A DNA stretch of 64,000 nt from Nitrosococcus watsonii C-113 (GTDB lineage Bacteria; Pseudomonadota; Gammaproteobacteria; Nitrosococcales; Nitrosococcaceae). Location: the NCBI RefSeq assembly GCF_000143085.1, contig NC_014315.1, positions 1,642,001 through 1,706,000 of the forward strand. The letters run 5' to 3'. Within the stretch, counting starts at the first letter, position 1. Each line of letters opens with the position of its first letter. A program made the translations under genes and the position numbers. The notes under the pieces are model-generated. The model was given only the letters and a program-made list of their open reading frames with translations, was not told the origin of the DNA and did no database searches. This document shows, in pieces, positions 5,903 through 49,399 of this stretch.

Positions 5903-5977
5903 TTAGAGTTTCCGCCTAAGTCTCGCTTGGCTGTTCTCGACAGCCGCGCTCGCCTTGCCGCCATTCGCATTTCCCGG
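5903..5977 (-). repeat. Isolated right-end remnant of the TnpB element family
   Basis: The stretch beginning ttagagtttccgcctaagtc matches the right ends of the two tnpB-bearing elements at 26250 and 42913. It contains the same hairpin, ggctg-ttctcga-cagcc (5929-5945). The loop is nearly identical to those copies, but the stem differs by compensating changes. No tnpB is adjacent, so this is a solo end or decayed copy. Confidence 0.75.
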
Positions 5978-6041
5978 TAGTTCTCAGATGATAGCTAAGC
6001 CACGGTCCTTAGGGTTTTGACCCACACTCCCACAAGTTTTG

Positions 6042-6073
6042 CCTGCCTGTGCGCGTCGGCGCGCACAGGCAGG
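6042..6073. repeat. Perfect 14-bp palindromic repeat unit
   Basis: Arms cctgcctgtgcgcg (6042-6055) and cgcgcacaggcagg (6060-6073) surround a tcgg loop. A shorter relative sits at 26288-26314 inside the right-end hairpin of the first TnpB element, so this looks like a dispersed mini-palindrome. The rest of 5888-6268 outside this unit and the remnant at 5903-5977 shows nothing I can name. Confidence 0.7.
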
Positions 6074-10192: not shown

Positions 10193-12118
10193 TCATGCTC
10201 CAACCTCATATTCTCTATATACCACGGGCTTTATAGCAGTCCCTATGCTAATCCCGAAAAGCCGGTTCATTCCATCCAGGAACTCTTTTCCTTGAGCTTC
10301 AAGGGAGGCGACGGCTGAGTCTAATACGCTCTCCTCGCCCTCAAAATCCCTAAGTAGTACGCGCAGCCTATAGGTTTTTTTATCCGCTAACATCACCTGG
10401 AGTTCAATGACCCCCTTCCCCTTTATCTCTCCTAGCATATCTGGTGCATCCTTCGCGGAGATTAAGGCGTTTACCTTATAGTCAGCTTTTGCACTCAGAG
10501 TTTGCCCCCTATGTTTGCTCAACCAATCCTCGCATTCTTTTACCGATATTCCACTTTCGCGCCAAAAAGCATCCCGGGAAAAATTAACCTCCAGGAATCG
10601 CTGCACTAAGAATTCCCTGTCAAGATACACAAATAACGCACCGCCCTTGGGTCCCTGCGGCTGATCAAGTAAGACTCGGTAAATAGCCGTAAAAGCGCTT
10701 TTCTGGTCAAGGGGTGTTAAGCGGGCGGTATCAAAAATAAGCTTTTGGTAAGCTTCCTCTCCTGGTGAGTCTTTGGGAAAATTTTCCCCCAAAAGATGCA
10801 AGAAAGCCCGTTGGGAATGACTCAATTCAGCGGCCGCGGCAGGTAGATTCGCCTGAAGCTCTATGCGATCTTCCTCCGAGGCATAGTTATCGAGCCAATA
10901 GGCCGCCGCTGATAATCGTTTTTTTAGATTCTCTTTATCTTGTCCAGTCAGCCCCTCTTCGGTCCTTTTTTGAATTTCATATTCCACGTCGATATGGGGC
11001 AGTTGCAGCAAGGCAATCAGCAATTGAAATCCGATTGGATGGTAAGCGGTGGAAGCCGGATCGACTTCAATCATCCGCAACATTTTTTTCTCAGAAGGAG
11101 CCTGTTCCCGTCGCGCCTTCTGGACCAGCCGGTCATGTTCATTAAACAACCTGACGATATACTCAAAGTCCGTGGAAAAATTGACCGTTCTTTTAGGCGG
11201 GGTCCGCACTATCAGAAATCTCAGTATCTCGGGCGGAAGAAAATGGGCTATCTCCCTAGCCGCCATACCCACCCCCTTGGAAGAGCTCATTTTAGCCCCA
11301 CTGACCAGGAAGAACTCATAGGGCACGTTCAACGGCGGCGAGTCGCCAAAGATTTCCTTCAGGCAACGGGCGGCCACATCACGGGAACCGCCTTTGGTGC
11401 AGTGATCCTTACCGGCACCCTCTATGGTAATGCCAAAGGTATGCCATTTTGCCGTCCATTCCAGCTTCCACGGCAACTTACCACGGCCATCAAAGGGAGA
11501 GACTTTTCCCTGGTGCCCGCATCCCTGAGCCCAGCTCACCAAATCAGTTTTACAATGGTAAGTCACTTCCTTGCCATCGTAAGCTGTTACCGCCGTAGTA
11601 CCAATCTTGCCACAATGCTCGCAGATTACTTGGAATGGATACCAATCCTCGGGCCGGGCCGCGTGGCTGACTTCCGCGTAGATCTTACGAACCACATCAG
11701 ACTTTTTTAAAATGGCGTCAATAGCTTGATTAAATCGTCCCGAGCGATAAATATCCCGCATTCTATATACTTGAGCCTCAACCCCAAGCTCCGGAAAAAT
11801 ATTCAAAAACTCGGAGATATAGTGATCCGCCAAATCCGTGGCCTTAGAACCAGCAGGGGCCGGTATGTTACAAAGGGGATACCCCATATATGCCTGCAAG
11901 GAAGAGGCTGCATCGGCGGGGAGACCGTCCAAGGGATCGTAGTCATCAATACCATACTGGTAGATGGCTTCCACCCCCTTATCCCGTAATGCACGATAAA
12001 TAGCATCATGAATTAAAACACCCCGTAAGGAACCCACATGCACCCTACCTGAAGGGGTTTTAGAGTCATTGATGAGTTGGGGGCCCGTCAGTCCCTCAAT
12101 GATTTTTTCGAACCACAT
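10193..12118 (-). CDS. lysS: Class I lysyl-tRNA synthetase
   Basis: This is a Rossmann-fold (class I) LysRS, the archaeal/spirochaete-type enzyme, which charges tRNA-Lys. The HIGH-like motif is HVGSLRG and the KMSKS motif is KMSSSKG. Cys pairs (CEHCG, then C and CGHQG) suggest a zinc-binding insertion. I prefer the ATG at 12118 (MWFEKIIEGLTGPQL, 641 residues), because the 21 residues encoded upstream from 12181 do not look like family sequence, but neither start has a strong RBS. Most bacteria use the unrelated class II enzyme. Whether a class II copy also exists here cannot be told from this window. Confidence 0.9.
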   Translation of the reverse strand: MWFEKIIEGLTGPQLINDSKTPSGRVHVGSLRGVLIHDAIYRALRDKGVEAIYQYGIDDYDPLDGLPADAASSLQAYMGYPLCNIPAPAGSKATDLADHYISEFLNIFPELGVEAQVYRMRDIYRSGRFNQAIDAILKKSDVVRKIYAEVSHAARPEDWYPFQVICEHCGKIGTTAVTAYDGKEVTYHCKTDLVSWAQGCGHQGKVSPFDGRGKLPWKLEWTAKWHTFGITIEGAGKDHCTKGGSRDVAARCLKEIFGDSPPLNVPYEFFLVSGAKMSSSKGVGMAAREIAHFLPPEILRFLIVRTPPKRTVNFSTDFEYIVRLFNEHDRLVQKARREQAPSEKKMLRMIEVDPASTAYHPIGFQLLIALLQLPHIDVEYEIQKRTEEGLTGQDKENLKKRLSAAAYWLDNYASEEDRIELQANLPAAAAELSHSQRAFLHLLGENFPKDSPGEEAYQKLIFDTARLTPLDQKSAFTAIYRVLLDQPQGPKGGALFVYLDREFLVQRFLEVNFSRDAFWRESGISVKECEDWLSKHRGQTLSAKADYKVNALISAKDAPDMLGEIKGKGVIELQVMLADKKTYRLRVLLRDFEGEESVLDSAVASLEAQGKEFLDGMNRLFGISIGTAIKPVVYREYEVGA

Positions 12119-26249: not shown

Positions 26250-27850
26250 TTGGAGTTTGCGGCTAAGTCTCGTTCGCTTGTTCCCGACCTGTCTGCGTGC
26301 ATCGCACAGGCAGGCAAGCTCACTCGCCTTGCTGCCCTTCGCGTTTCATAGGCGTCCTTTGGCGGTCATGCAACCACCTCCAGTTTGTATACGCCTCCAC
26401 GCGCATCACTTCCGGTCCTCCCAACCGTAGCTAACCTCAAAATATTCCGGGCTGCGTTAATATCCCGGTCATGAACAGCCCCACATTCACAGGACCACTG
26501 CCGCACTTTGAGCAGCATAGCATCGATCACTGCGCCACACACCGAGCACGTTTTACTGGTGGGCGCCCAGCGGTCCACTTGCACAAACTCGCAGCCATAC
26601 CAGGCGGCTTTGTACTCGATTTGCCGTTTGAGCTCGTGCATGCCCACATCACCCAACGCCTTAGATAGCCGTCTATTGGCCATCATGCCCTTGACGTTGA
26701 GCGTTTCCATGGCAATGAGCCCGGCCTGACGTATAAGCGCCGTGGTGAGCTTATGGAGCCAATCCTGACGGGTATTCTTTACCCTGGCGTGGGCCTTGGC
26801 GACCCTTACTCGCTGGCGGTGCCAGCGAACGCTACCCTTGCGCCTGCGCGAGAGCCGACGCTGAGTTTTGGTGAGTTGCCGGGTATGCGTACGTAGGTGG
26901 CGTGGGTTACCGGATTTCCAACCCTCGGAGGTCACGACAATATCCTTTACCCCGAGATCTACGCCGATACCGTTTGGCTCTCGCGGTAGGGGCTGGAGGG
27001 TTTCCTCGCACATAAAGGCGACACCATAACGGCCAGCGCAGTCCTGGGTGACCGTCACCATCTTGGGGATGCCCTGGGGCTTGCGGGACCATTTGAGCTT
27101 AAGCAAGCCAAGCTTGGGCAGCTTAAGAAACTCACCCGCCCGATACCTTCCCGCTACCTGGCGTGGGTCGAGTTGATAGCGGATGCTTTGGGCGTGGGCT
27201 CTTTTCTTGAAGCGGGGATATTTCGCTCGCCCTGCAAAGAAGTTTTTAAACGCGGTGTCCTGGTCCCTGAGCTTTTGATTGAGCGTGGTCGCGCTGGCCT
27301 CTTTTAACCAACCATAGGCCGCTGTCTTTTTTAGCTTGGTGAGGTGCCCGCTAAAGTCAACAGCGCTTACGCTTTGACCGCGGTGGCGATAAACGTAACT
27401 ACGCCAGGCTAAACAGGTATTCCACACCCATCGCCCATGGCCAAACTCAATAGCGAGTTGCTGACGCTGGGCGCTGGTGGGGTAGAAGCGGAATGTATAG
27501 GACCGCTGGATAGTGGTAAAATCACGCTTGGTCATGGCCTCAATACTCATTCTATTGGGTCGGTGGCAAGTGGCTAGGTGATGCGTCAACATCAGCTAGC
27601 CACGCTTATTCTACCGCGAATTTTACTCGCCGCAAACTTCACTTTACTTGCCTTTTGCCATCTATTCGCGCTATGATTTTCTCGCTCTCGGAGCCTAGGG
27701 TCGGGAGGACCCGAGGTGAAAGCGCGTGGAGCGGCAAACCAACGGAGGCCAAGGTAAACCCTTCGCCGAAGGCTGTTAGGAAGCGCGAATTCTCCAGGCT
27801 GATGAGGTTTTGAATGGACAAAACTGGCATCAGTCATGGCGAAACTCCAA
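26250..27850 (-). mobile_element. Complete TnpB-only element (IS1341-like group of IS200/IS605)
   Basis: The element contains one gene (tnpB) and no tnpA. On the plus strand it runs from ttggagtttgcggc (26250) to gcgaaactccaa (ending 27850), a 9-bp terminal inverted match. The right end carries a hairpin gcttg-ttcccga...caagc (26276-26319) into whose loop a 27-bp palindrome has been inserted (26288-26314). The left end carries a hairpin (arms ctgatg 27799-27804 and catcag 27828-27833). Both hairpins have counterparts in other copies in this window. The omega RNA is expected to lie between the tnpB 3' end and 26250. Exact ends are inferred from copy comparison. Confidence 0.8.
26366..27592 (-). 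CDS. tnpB: TnpB RNA-guided endonuclease
   Basis: The 408-residue protein shows the full TnpB arrangement: a basic N-terminal wedge/REC part starting at about TIQRSYTFRFYPTSAQ, and a RuvC nuclease with Asp in GIGVDLGVKD, Glu in IAMETLNVKGM and Asp in HDRDINAARN. Between RuvC motifs II and III sits a zinc finger (CSVCG ... CECG). All catalytic residues are present, so it could be active with an omega RNA from its own 3' end. Internal Met at residue 15 or 20 is an alternative start. It is about 75% or more similar by eye to the copy at 42994. Confidence 0.92.
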   Translation of the reverse strand: MLTHHLATCHRPNRMSIEAMTKRDFTTIQRSYTFRFYPTSAQRQQLAIEFGHGRWVWNTCLAWRSYVYRHRGQSVSAVDFSGHLTKLKKTAAYGWLKEASATTLNQKLRDQDTAFKNFFAGRAKYPRFKKRAHAQSIRYQLDPRQVAGRYRAGEFLKLPKLGLLKLKWSRKPQGIPKMVTVTQDCAGRYGVAFMCEETLQPLPREPNGIGVDLGVKDIVVTSEGWKSGNPRHLRTHTRQLTKTQRRLSRRRKGSVRWHRQRVRVAKAHARVKNTRQDWLHKLTTALIRQAGLIAMETLNVKGMMANRRLSKALGDVGMHELKRQIEYKAAWYGCEFVQVDRWAPTSKTCSVCGAVIDAMLLKVRQWSCECGAVHDRDINAARNILRLATVGRTGSDARGGVYKLEVVA

Positions 27851-42912: not shown

Positions 42913-44290
42913 TTGGAGTTTGCGGCTAAGTCTCGTTCGCTTGTTCCCGACAAGCTCCCTCGCCTGCTGCAATTCGCGTTTCCACGGAGTCCTTTAGCAG
43001 CCATAAGCCACCTCCGGTGGGTATACTCCTCCACGCGCATGACTTTCCGGCCTCCCGCCGGTAGCTAACCTTAAAATATTTTTAGCCGCGTTGATATCGC
43101 GGTCATGGGCTGTTTGGCAATCCGGGCAGGTCCACTGCCGCACTTTGAGCGGCATGGCTTTTTGCACTGCGCCACACACTGAGCACGTTTTACTGGTGGG
43201 CGCCCACCTATCCACTTGCACCAACTCTCGGCCATACCACTTAGCCTTGTATTCCAATTGGCGTTTAAGTTCGTGCATACCTACATCGCCCAGCGCCCTG
43301 GATAGCCGTCTATTGGCCATCATGCCCCTGACGTTGAGCGTTTCCAGGGCAATCAAGCCGGCCTGTCGAATCAGCGTCGTGGTGAGCTTGTGCAACCAGT
43401 CTTGCCGACTCTCTCTGACCTTGGCATGAGCCTTGGTTACCCGGATACGCTGATGGTGCCAGCGAACGCTGCCCTTACGCTTGCGCGAGAGTCGACGCTG
43501 GGCCTTGGTGAGTTGCCGGGCATAGGTTTTGAGGTGCCGTGGGTTGCCTGACTTCCAGCCCTCGGAAGTCACCACCACATCGCACACCCCTAAATCAACA
43601 CCGATACCGTTTGGCTTTCGCGGTAGGGGTTGGAGGGTTTCCTCGCACATGAACGAAACGAAATAACGACCCGCACAGTCCCGGCTGACCGTCACCATTT
43701 TGGGGATGCCCTGGGGCTTGCGGGACCCCTTGAGTTTGAGCGACCCGAGTTTGGGCAGAACGAGCTTACCCTCTATCCACGCTTTCATCTTGCCCCTGTG
43801 GCGATGATCAAAGCAGTAGCGGATACTTTGCCCGTGCGCTCTTTTTTTAAACTTGGGATACTTGGCGCGGCCCGCAAAGAAATTCCTGAAGGCCGTGTCC
43901 TGGTCGCGGAGCTTTTGCATGAGGCAATCGCGGGTCGCCTCGTTCAGCCAGGCGTAGAAACCCAATCCCTTGAGAAACGTCAACTCGCGGCTAAAATCAA
44001 CGCCAGTCACGCGCTTGTCATGCACCCGGTATTGACGGCGACGCCAGGCTAAAGCGGTATTCCACACCCACCGGGCATGGCCGAACTCCATGGCGAGTTG
44101 CTGGCGCTGGACGCTGGTGGGGTAGAAGCGCAATTTATAGGACCGCTGGATAGTGGTAGAATCACGCTCGGTCATGGCCTCAATATTCGTCCTATTGGGT
44201 CGGTGGCAAGTGGCTAGGTAGTGCTCCAACACTCCCTGGCCGCGCTCATTATATCGCGAATTTTGCCCGCCGCAAACATCACCTTACTTT
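42913..44290 (-). mobile_element. Second TnpB-only element, right end and body; left end split off
   Basis: The right end starts at 42913 with the same ttggagtttgcggctaagtc sequence as the first element and a hairpin gcttg-ttcccga-caagc (42939-42955). The tnpB gene is intact. The sequence between the gene and about 44290 matches the first element's left part (cgcgaatttt...ccgccgcaaac), then breaks. The matching outer left end is found at 48980-49205. The right end lies 39 bp from the GTG of the BrkB gene. Confidence 0.75.
42994..44232 (-). CDS. tnpB: TnpB RNA-guided endonuclease, second copy
   Basis: A 412-residue paralogue of the protein at 26366. RuvC residues are intact: GIGVDLGVCD, IALETLNVRGM and AHDRDINAAKN. 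The zinc finger has CSVCG and CPDC. It differs from the first copy mainly in the N-terminal half (for example WRRRQYRVHDKRVTG), while RuvC and finger are nearly identical. No tnpA is present. The short region downstream of the stop, up to 42913, would contain the omega RNA scaffold. Confidence 0.92.
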   Translation of the reverse strand: MLEHYLATCHRPNRTNIEAMTERDSTTIQRSYKLRFYPTSVQRQQLAMEFGHARWVWNTALAWRRRQYRVHDKRVTGVDFSRELTFLKGLGFYAWLNEATRDCLMQKLRDQDTAFRNFFAGRAKYPKFKKRAHGQSIRYCFDHRHRGKMKAWIEGKLVLPKLGSLKLKGSRKPQGIPKMVTVSRDCAGRYFVSFMCEETLQPLPRKPNGIGVDLGVCDVVVTSEGWKSGNPRHLKTYARQLTKAQRRLSRKRKGSVRWHHQRIRVTKAHAKVRESRQDWLHKLTTTLIRQAGLIALETLNVRGMMANRRLSRALGDVGMHELKRQLEYKAKWYGRELVQVDRWAPTSKTCSVCGAVQKAMPLKVRQWTCPDCQTAHDRDINAAKNILRLATGGRPESHARGGVYPPEVAYGC

Positions 44291-44388
44291 GCCCTCGCGC
44301 TCGATGCGCCACTTCGTTTCGCACGCTCGCTGGGGGGTCGCCGTACATCCCTGTACTCCTTCGCTGCGGACCTTATTGAAGCAGGCTG

Positions 44389-47547: not shown

Positions 47548-48849
47548 TTAACTTCCCTCAGGTGGTTTAAGGACTGTCACCGAAACAAGCGGCGTGACAT
47601 TGAAACCAACCTTCAGAAGATGCTGCTGGATCTGATGGGTAAGGTACCGCTTAAGCTTAGTTTCATCAGCGTCCGAGAGGGTGATTTTTTTGATGGGTTG
47701 AACATAGACGAGGGCAAGGAGTGAATTTTGTCCAGGAATATTAGTCCGGGTAAAACGAGCATTCGCCTCGATCAGGTGAACTACCTTGCTTGCTTCCACC
47801 GCTGTTCGAATTTCCGCAACGGCACGCTGGGCACGGGTACTACGCTGGAGTTCTGGGGAGGAGCTGAATTGCCACCACAGAAGTCCCGCAAGGACCACGG
47901 CTGAACCGGTGAGAAGAACGGGAAAAGCCCACCTTTGTCCCTTCAAAAATCGCGGTCCTTTCGCTGACAGCCCATAAAGGCGAAAGACCACGGCACCCGC
48001 AAAATTGATCCCCATTAGCTGGAGTAGAAGGACGAAAACCGCTCCTTTAGCCATTGCCCATTCTCCGAGCACCAAAGTCATTCCTAACAGGCCCGTCGGT
48101 GGAGCAAGAGAGGCCGCTACGAGCATACCCACAGCAGCGCCTGAAACCAGGCTATCACGTTCACTCTGGACAAGATTAATGGCCCCGGCAGCCCCAGCCG
48201 ATAGGGGAAGAAGCGCGCTTACTACCGAAATTTCACTGACGTCCACCATCAAACTTGTCGCTGCGCTCAACCGGAAGATCCAGGTGAGAAGCGCCGCGAC
48301 CCCGGCAGTCACTATCAGCCCGAGGATATAACGACCAAGGCTGCGCCGGATTAGATGAAAATGGCCAGTCGCTGTGCCAATGGCCGCATTCATGGCAGGT
48401 CCCGCGAAAGGGGCTATCAGCATCGCCGCAACCAGAAGATAGATGGTATTAGTAATAAGGCCGATCCAAACTACAATACCGCCTGCTACCGCATAGCTGA
48501 TGAACCCCCGCAGTGAGCCGATGCTCTGAAGTCCGGACAGATAGACCTCAAAAGGGCTTCGCTCGCTCACATCTACAGTCTGCTCCGGCACCTGGTCCGC
48601 CGGAGGACGAAGGGGAAGAATACCGCGTGGCTCAAAGGTGAAATGGGCTTCTGAGTCGATATCCTGCACCGCCTGGAGAAACGACCCCACCTGCCGGTTT
48701 GGGAGATGGGCCAAAATCAGCGCTTTCTTTTCCCCTTCCCGCCAACCGCTCAAGGGGAGATGCCACACATTCATAGCGGCAAACGCTTGAGCCTCTTCGA
48801 TAACCTTCACCGCCTTCTCTTCGACTACCTCAATATACAGTTGACGCAT
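47548..48849 (-). CDS. DUF389 domain membrane protein
   Basis: A 433-residue inner-membrane protein. The N-terminal soluble region (about 1-115) is followed by the DUF389 transmembrane domain (GGIVVWIGLITNTIYLLVAAMLIAPFAGPAMNAAIGTATG) with six or so helices, and then a periplasmic C-terminal part after about residue 320 (TRAQRAVAEIRTAVEASKVV). A strong RBS (GAGGAGG) precedes the ATG. Function is unknown. It is the outermost gene of the inverted-repeat-bounded segment. Confidence 0.85.
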   Translation of the reverse strand: MRQLYIEVVEEKAVKVIEEAQAFAAMNVWHLPLSGWREGEKKALILAHLPNRQVGSFLQAVQDIDSEAHFTFEPRGILPLRPPADQVPEQTVDVSERSPFEVYLSGLQSIGSLRGFISYAVAGGIVVWIGLITNTIYLLVAAMLIAPFAGPAMNAAIGTATGHFHLIRRSLGRYILGLIVTAGVAALLTWIFRLSAATSLMVDVSEISVVSALLPLSAGAAGAINLVQSERDSLVSGAAVGMLVAASLAPPTGLLGMTLVLGEWAMAKGAVFVLLLQLMGINFAGAVVFRLYGLSAKGPRFLKGQRWAFPVLLTGSAVVLAGLLWWQFSSSPELQRSTRAQRAVAEIRTAVEASKVVHLIEANARFTRTNIPGQNSLLALVYVQPIKKITLSDADETKLKRYLTHQIQQHLLKVGFNVTPLVSVTVLKPPEGS

Positions 48850-49399
48850 GCCAGTCCTCCTCTTTATTAAATGGACTTCTTCCTACGCTAAAAATATATA
48901 GAACATTGGAATTGAACATGGGTGTTTAATGGCCCCCCAGAGAGAGTGCAAAGTGAAACGGCGCATCGAGCGCGAGGGCTAAGTTGCTTGCGTTTTGCCA
49001 TGAATTCGCGGTATGTTTTTCTCGTTGGCAAGAGCGCGACCTACCGGCGGGGGGCCGGGAAGTGATGTGCGTGACGGGTGATACCCAACGGAGGGCCTTG
49101 CGCGCTAAGTCATGGGCCAGCCCGAGGCACCCGTTGAAGCGCGAATTCTCCAGACGGATAAAATTTTGTAGGCACAAAACTTTATCCGTCATGGCGAAAC
49201 TCCAAGGACTGTTTATTGTTAGTAGTTATACATAGTTAATGCTGCCCTGGAGCAAGGTATCTTCTTTAAATTCGAGACTTACCAGAGAAGAGCACCTGCA
49301 ACGCGGCATATTTCTCATAAACCTGGGCCTGAGAGGCTTCTTGGCCTATATTTGATAGGGATCAACAATTATGTCGATATATAACAGGGGGTATTATCC
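48850..49399. other. Intergenic region with element ends
   Basis: No gene is supported in these 550 bp. It contains the right arm of the inverted repeat (about 48931-48979) and the detached left end of the TnpB element (48980-49205). The remaining 190 bp precede the flavoprotein gene and show no clear promoter. Confidence 0.6.
48980..49205. repeat. Detached left end of a TnpB family element
   Basis: The sequence from about 48987 (ttgcgttttgccatgaattcgcgg) to 49205 (ending gcgaaactccaa) is a diverged copy of 27650-27850. It holds a hairpin gacggataaa/tttatccgtc (49153-49162, 49181-49190) with inner ttttgt/acaaaa pairing; the matching hairpin of the first element has a different stem that pairs equally well. 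Confidence 0.75.

What the first reader, a model, noticed from the sequence alone, without database searches (positions are those of the whole stretch)
26250..27850. TnpB-only element family with hairpins conserved by compensating changes
Right-end hairpins at 5929, 26276 and 42939 keep the loop ttcccga/ttctcga while the stems differ as gcttg/caagc versus ggctg/cagcc. Left-end hairpins at 27799 and 49153 have different but equally paired stems. Such covariation points to selection on folded DNA or RNA ends, here without any tnpA in the window.
Basis: partly seen in the sequence, partly recalled or inferred. Interest (0 to 1): 0.75.

Follow-up and report, generated by a model that had tools for sequence, protein, structure and literature searches.

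The report
Tiny jumping genes carrying guide-RNA scaffolds

Summary
The "left ends" at 27799 and 49153 are right ends (RE), on the + strand, of tnpB-less mini-elements; the one at 27799 is a half mini fused inverted to a tnpB element. The mini was found in 4 of 4 held genomes of the genus and 0 of 55 other relatives. Of 138 RE matches, 117 have no TnpB domain next to them. Two clean empty sites, of ten compared, show insertion after CTTY or CATT without target duplication, as in IS200/IS605. Covarying hairpins near the left and right end flank, in intact minis, an omega-RNA-like scaffold. In type A its helices covary, and one domain was not found in any tnpB element. None of 35 tnpA loci held has such ends around the gene. 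Best reading: PATE-like, non-autonomous IS200/IS605 elements that keep a guide-RNA gene served by TnpB in trans. Structure and insertion mode are shown; RNA expression, TnpB use in trans and the TnpA are inferred. New variant of a known kind.

The parts
26250..27645 (-). tnpB element of the window type ('W type'), no left-end motif found
   Evidence: aligns at 79-80% to two G002 elements over 26250-27645/27652; L005, which holds it, has no LE match
26366..27592 (-). tnpB, 408 aa, RuvC triad residues kept
   Evidence: Pfam OrfB_IS605, TNB, HTH; NCBIfam guided_TnpB; residues aligned to D213/E297/D379 of the 42994 protein
26250..26357 (-). W-type right end, hairpin GCTTG/CAAGC with a 27-nt palindrome in its loop
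27646..27850 (+). right half of a type B mini-element, inverted relative to tnpB: scaffold 27681-27787 and RE hairpin, ending CTCCAA at 27850; no left end of its own found
42913..44362 (-). tnpB element of W type with left and right end; LE tip at 44362, RE end at 42913
   Evidence: homology borders 42912/42913 and 44362/44363 against G002; LE motif (L002)
42994..44232 (-). tnpB, 412 aa
42913..42992 (-). W-type right end with hairpin GCTTG/CAAGC, loop TCGGGAA
48908..49205 (+). type A mini-element, 298 bp, 5' flank CATT, no tnpB
48911..48930 (+). left-end hairpin of the mini-element
   Evidence: alignment A3, columns 11-32
49025..49138 (+). omega-RNA-like scaffold, type A (two domains, P1 and P2)
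49141..49205 (+). right end with hairpin ACGGATAAA/TTTATCCGT; the presumed guide starts at 49206
5903..5983 (-). W-type right end with no tnpB beside it, hairpin GGCTG/CAGCC

Best explanation
These are IS200/IS605-type elements, of which tnpB-less, PATE-like mini-elements are the main form. Shown: a covarying hairpin near each end; insertion 3' of a CNTT-like motif without target duplication at two sites; an omega-RNA-like scaffold related to the 3' end of tnpB elements of the same genus; and, in type A, a scaffold domain found only in tnpB-less copies. Inferred: a Y1 transposase (TnpA) acting in trans recognises the hairpins on single-stranded DNA and moves the element. The mini is transcribed into a guide RNA whose guide is the DNA just beyond CTCCAA. 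TnpB from another copy loads this RNA and cuts sites where the element has left or is missing (CNTT acting as TAM), so that repair restores the element. Selection would then act on the left hairpin as DNA, and on the right hairpin as DNA and as part of the RNA.
For: 138 RE matches in four genomes, 21 next to a TnpB TNB domain and 117 not. Same LE motif upstream of tnpB in 18 of 38 TnpB loci held and in the minis. 5' flank CNTT in 47 of 56 aligned left ends; background 1.9% of positions in the window. Clean empty sites S1 and S2. Compensated changes: LE 87 double-change cells against 36.8 in shuffles, RE 83 against 10.8, type A scaffold 28 against 7.7. P2 part of the type A scaffold in 35 matches, of which 1 has a TnpB domain within 600 bp upstream (344 bp), with a separate left end between; 12 of 14 shorter matches adjoin TnpB within 18 bp. 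RuvC D/E/D residues kept in both window TnpBs. Published: the TnpB guide RNA derives from the RE and its last 16 nt from the flank (PMC8612924, passages); a subterminal hairpin lies within 10 nt of the scaffold's 3' end in almost all orthologs (PMC10278001, passages).
Against: No RNA data; the sigma-70 consensus scan finds no promoter in the mini at 48908-49205. No TnpA with matching ends was found; the seven tnpA-tnpB copies compared have other ends. Only 2 of 10 compared sites are clean, and the S2 copy has lost its right hairpin. Shuffles do not remove relatedness, modules are exchanged between copies, and the structures counted were read from these same sequences. 19% of LE cells and 6.5% of RE cells are unpaired; pair types do not exceed the shuffles for either end, nor does the number of double-changed pairs for the LE. 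The type A right end resembles that of the other TnpB subfamily, not that of the W-type TnpB its P1 domain resembles, so the cognate TnpB of type A is not certain.
Confidence: 0.6

Rival explanations
1. The minis are ordinary PATEs: passive passengers of a trans-acting TnpA. The scaffold is a leftover of tnpB elements and makes no working guide RNA; only the DNA hairpins are under selection.
For: PATEs with tnpB remnants are known, and the passages read claim no RNA role for them (PMC7290912; PMC3119063). No RNA data; no promoter by the consensus scan. Several minis are short or have lost parts.
Against: The type A scaffold keeps its pairs at 96.7% with 28 double-change cells, and its P2 domain was found only in tnpB-less copies, so it did not diversify inside any tnpB element that was found.
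Confidence: 0.27
2. The apparent covariation is mostly shared ancestry and exchange of end modules between copies, with few independent compensated changes.
For: LE classes and body types are mixed among copies. On a body tree, LE pairs 12-31 and 13-30 need only 2 changes, and RE pairs 18-57, 19-56, 20-55, 10-65 and 12-63 need 0-2.
Against: On the same tree LE pairs 11-32, 14-29 and 16-27 need at least 11, 16 and 10 changes among paired states, one-sided G-U changes included, and sliding the partner by 1-3 columns drops LE pairing from 80.8% to 32-48%.
Confidence: 0.08
3. The RNA has been taken over for gene regulation, as in nuclease-dead TnpB repressors (recalled).
For: The mini at 48908 and the composite at 26250 lie between listed ORFs. 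At least three sites are shared by two genomes, judged by like flanks (L024/L249, L008/L238, L286/L288), so some copies are old.
Against: Window TnpBs keep the catalytic residues; apart from such shared sites the flanks listed differ between copies, so no common target is seen.
Confidence: 0.05

Closest known systems
Palindrome-associated transposable elements (PATEs) of Haloquadratum and Halanaerobium
   Same: Short, no transposase, near-terminal palindromes, no target duplication, related to IS605-type elements; in Haloquadratum more numerous than them (PMC3119063, passages); the one Halanaerobium PATE holds the last 58 nt of tnpB plus the whole RE (PMC7290912, passages).
   Different: Here the retained part is an omega-RNA-like scaffold with covarying helices and, in type A, a domain not found in the tnpB copies. 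The passages read mention no guide RNA.
IS1341-type, tnpB-only elements of the IS200/IS605 family
   Same: tnpB without linked tnpA, hairpins near both ends; PMC3119063 reports many tnpB genes without tnpA (passages).
   Different: Nothing basic; the subfamilies and the CNTT flank are those of this genus.
ISDra2 TnpB-reRNA and other omega-RNAs of TnpB
   Same: Scaffold derives from the RE, guide is the flank, the target motif next to the LE is the TAM (PMC8612924, passages); RE hairpin at the scaffold's 3' end (PMC10278001, passages).
   Different: In the minis the scaffold has no tnpB in cis, so TnpB would have to act in trans.
Trans-acting stand-alone omega-RNAs of IscB (recalled, not from a call)
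   Same: Guide-RNA loci without the nuclease gene beside them.
   Different: Those belong to IscB; here TnpB, inside elements with both transposon ends.

Membership tests
IS200/IS605 family (non-autonomous member) | hairpins near both ends | tested here: met
IS200/IS605 family (non-autonomous member) | insertion 3' of a short fixed target, no target duplication | tested here: met
   S1, S2 clean; the 8 other sites compared cannot be read cleanly; 47 of 56 CNTT
IS200/IS605 family (non-autonomous member) | Y1 TnpA that acts on these ends | tested here: inconclusive
   tnpA genes without stops exist in the four genomes, none of 35 loci held has matching ends around the gene; action in trans not testable here
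PATE | no transposase gene, near-terminal palindromes, no target duplication | tested here: met
PATE | no terminal inverted repeats | tested here: inconclusive
   many copies read TTGGA...TCCAA, a 5-bp inverted match whose TT belongs to the target
TnpB guide (omega) RNA | scaffold homologous to tnpB 3' end plus RE, subterminal hairpin near its 3' end | tested here: met
   (type A: homology over the first domain only)
TnpB guide (omega) RNA | transcribed, bound by TnpB, directs cleavage | not testable with these tools
   needs RNA sequencing and cleavage tests
known Rfam family | match at the gathering score in the window | tested here: not met
   0 matches

The most novel reading that the evidence does not exclude
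Type A minis are protein-less, RNA-guided transposons: a guide-RNA gene family that lives only as a mobile element, has evolved its own scaffold domain (P2), and parasitises both a TnpA and a TnpB in trans, so that each new insertion becomes a new guide protecting its own site.
Probability: 0.35. Interest if true: 0.75.

Novelty: new variant of a known kind. Interest (0 to 1): 0.52.

Why it matters
If the minis make guide RNAs that TnpB uses in trans, RNA-guided retention is not confined to elements that carry the nuclease, and one nuclease could serve dozens of guides, halfway to a guide array. The genus offers many natural copies, two of them with a clean empty site in a sister genome, on which this can be tested directly.

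Tried and rejected
IscB/HEARO: the ORF beside 49153 (47548-48849) is a DUF389 protein, not IscB, and the window has no Rfam match at gathering scores. Left ends: rejected by homology with the RE of tnpB elements. The tnpA-tnpB elements as relatives of these ends: seven copies compared have unrelated ends; five of the seven carry ATAAATTAC at the start of the conserved part and two do not, so their exact target was not settled. L012, the one tnpA locus with LE/RE motifs, has its Y1 fragment outside the mini. The first alignment of W-type right ends had wrong coordinates in one row and short ends in others; it was redone.

Rows dropped and caps: the model searches score at most 150 first-look candidates a genome, so the counts are what passed that cap; matches count pieces, for instance the L012 copy twice. 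Alignment A2 holds 90 of 116 right ends extracted from held loci, 87 distinct (26 left out: duplicate, incomplete, or with the palindrome inserted). A3 holds 56 of 116 (54 without a good left end, 6 duplicates). A7 holds 24 type A scaffolds, of 25 rows (one L012 row is a truncated double). The 18 of 38 TnpB loci with an LE leave out L006 (weak) and L008 and L203 (LE of a neighbouring mini); 38 of the 107 TnpB matches were held as loci for that test, and 35 of 36 tnpA matches.

Literature searches: seen as listings; five papers were opened for passages. No paper with both Nitrosococcus and TnpB was found in the held library. The search for TnpB, guide RNA and miniature inverted-repeat elements listed one review, which I did not open. 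Most subscription papers are not held, so absence from print is not shown.

Full report
What was claimed and what is there. The first three are right ends (RE) of one type ('W type'), read on the - strand, with arms GCTTG/CAAGC or GGCTG/CAGCC; 13 of 15 copies found in held sequence pair. At 26276 a 27-nt palindrome sits in the loop. The other two are also right ends, on the + strand, of elements without tnpB: copies read GCGAATTCTCCAG-hairpin-CATGGCGAAACTCCAA with changes.

The reported interval. Window 26250-27850 is a composite. 26250-27645 is a tnpB element on the - strand, matched over that length by two elements of genome G002. 27646-27850 is the right half of a type B mini, inverted, with scaffold at 27681-27787. 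The result has a right end at each border. Genome G002 has other sequence here and shares the flanks on both sides.

How common. A sequence-only model of the RE (R1, no structure, so hits were not selected for pairing) gives 30, 27, 63 and 18 matches in G000-G003, with at most 150 candidates scored a genome. The TnpB domain PF07282 gives 17, 46, 35 and 9. Of the 138 RE matches, 21 lie within 350 bp downstream of a TnpB domain on the same strand and 117 do not; the 117 include fragments and a few split copies, and some may sit beside tnpB remains that have lost the domain. A DNA search with the mini found it in the own genome and the 3 others of the genus, and in 0 of 55 further relatives.

Anatomy. 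An intact mini, such as window 48908-49205, has a left-end hairpin 3 nt from its tip, a scaffold of about 113 nt, and the RE hairpin whose outer foot is 6 nt from the end. Left ends share a motif with 18 of 38 tnpB loci held. The four bases before the left end are C-N-T-T in 47 of 56, against 1.9% of positions in the window; the 3' flank shows no motif of that strength. Type A scaffolds match the 3' end of W-type tnpB elements over about columns 13-72 of 113; type B scaffolds match the 3' end of the other tnpB subfamily over most of their length. Of 35 matches that include the second domain (P2), one has a TnpB domain within 600 bp upstream, and a separate left end lies between. Of 14 shorter matches, 12 adjoin TnpB. 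Type A was found in G000 and G002 only. Sorting the 116 held right ends by the block before the scaffold gave 25 type A and 22 type B rows, so the two types cover under half of the copies held.

Covariation. RE: 90 sequences, 87 distinct, 14 pairs, 93.5% paired against 89.3% in shuffles, 83 double-change cells against 10.8; with six outer pairs added, 91.0% against 87.2% and 105 against 17.8, though one of the six (8-68) pairs in only 24 of 87 rows. LE: 56 sequences, 9 pairs, 80.8% against 66.9%, 87 against 36.8. Type A scaffold: 24 sequences, 29 pairs, 96.7% against 92.8%, 28 against 7.7. The number of pair types is not above the shuffles for RE and LE, and for LE neither is the number of pairs with a double change. 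Shuffles keep no relatedness, and the structures were read or computed from these same sequences, which favours them over the slid controls. On a tree of 52 mini bodies three LE pairs need at least 10-16 changes among paired states (G-U changes included) and two need only 2; of eight RE pairs tested, two need 12-14, one 4 and five 0-2. Module exchange can cause such repeats as well as mutation. Unpaired cells are 6.5% (RE) and 19% (LE).

Insertion. Between G000 and G002, ten sites with a family member were compared. Two are clean: S1, where G002 holds a mini between ATACTTT and GATCGATATCCC and G000 reads ATACTTC-GATTGATGTCCC; and S2, where G002 holds a mini after CACATT and G000 reads CACATT-ATCTCTGAGAAA. 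Neither shows a target duplication or loss. The S2 copy lacks its right hairpin. At the other eight, sequence beside or between the shared flanks differs, so the junction cannot be read. At least three sites are occupied in two genomes, judged by like flanks (L024/L249, L008/L238, L286/L288).

Transposase and nuclease. The four genomes have 5, 17, 8 and 6 Y1 matches. None of the 35 loci held of these 36 has LE/RE motifs around the gene; in L012 a Y1 fragment lies outside a mini. The seven tnpA-tnpB copies compared have unrelated ends, five of them with ATAAATTAC at the start of the conserved part. Both window TnpBs keep the D/E/D of the RuvC site, at 213, 297 and 379 of the 42994 protein (that these are the catalytic residues is recalled, with D191 of ISDra2 named in PMC8612924).

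How it probably works. By the published model, TnpA binds subterminal hairpins and inserts 3' of a short target (PMC5934647, passages); the TnpB guide RNA derives from the RE, takes the flank as guide, and needs the motif retained beside the LE as TAM (PMC8612924, passages). The RE hairpin is the one feature common to the TnpB guide RNAs surveyed and may serve both proteins (PMC10278001, passages). The family fits this, with TnpA and TnpB supplied in trans to the minis. The LE hairpin lies outside the scaffold, so its covariation points to DNA. That the minis are transcribed and used by TnpB is inference: a conserved block before the scaffold resembles a weak promoter by eye, but the consensus scan does not call it.

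Known or new. Elements of this build are PATEs, treated at length in a 2011 paper (PMC3119063, passages), and a PATE with the tnpB end plus RE is on record (PMC7290912, passages). What the passages read do not contain is a guide-RNA scaffold kept by compensated changes, or a scaffold domain found only in tnpB-less copies. The literature held is partial.

Noticed in passing
window 6042-6073 and 26288-26314; loci L012, L041, L043, L175, L255, L256, L321: A palindrome of about 27-32 nt (CCTGCCTGTGCG...CGCACGCAGACAGG) sits in hairpin loops of these elements. Of 6 copies found by pattern in 444 kb, 4 lie in well-defined members and 2 beside a solo right end (6042) or a weak left-end match (G002 1739279). 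It recalls the SMR-A repeats that insert into PATE palindromes in Haloquadratum.
   Followed up: partly
G002 (locus L298, about 10500-11838), against window 49316/49317: A tnpB element of another type is present in G002 and absent from the window at this point.
   Followed up: no
G002:C2 about 1655060-1686800 against G000:C1 about 1775940: About 31 kb present in G002 and not at the matching point of G000 is bordered by a mini and a tnpB element of this family.
   Followed up: no
loci L221, L223, L227, L228 (G001, G003): Y1 matches in open frames of 292-306 aa, the size (recalled) of REP-associated transposases, occur in two of the four genomes.
   Followed up: no
L255 and other minis, after the left hairpin: A second, longer palindrome (CCCTAGCG...CGCGAGGG, near-perfect in L255) follows the left-end hairpin in many minis, by eye.
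   Followed up: no
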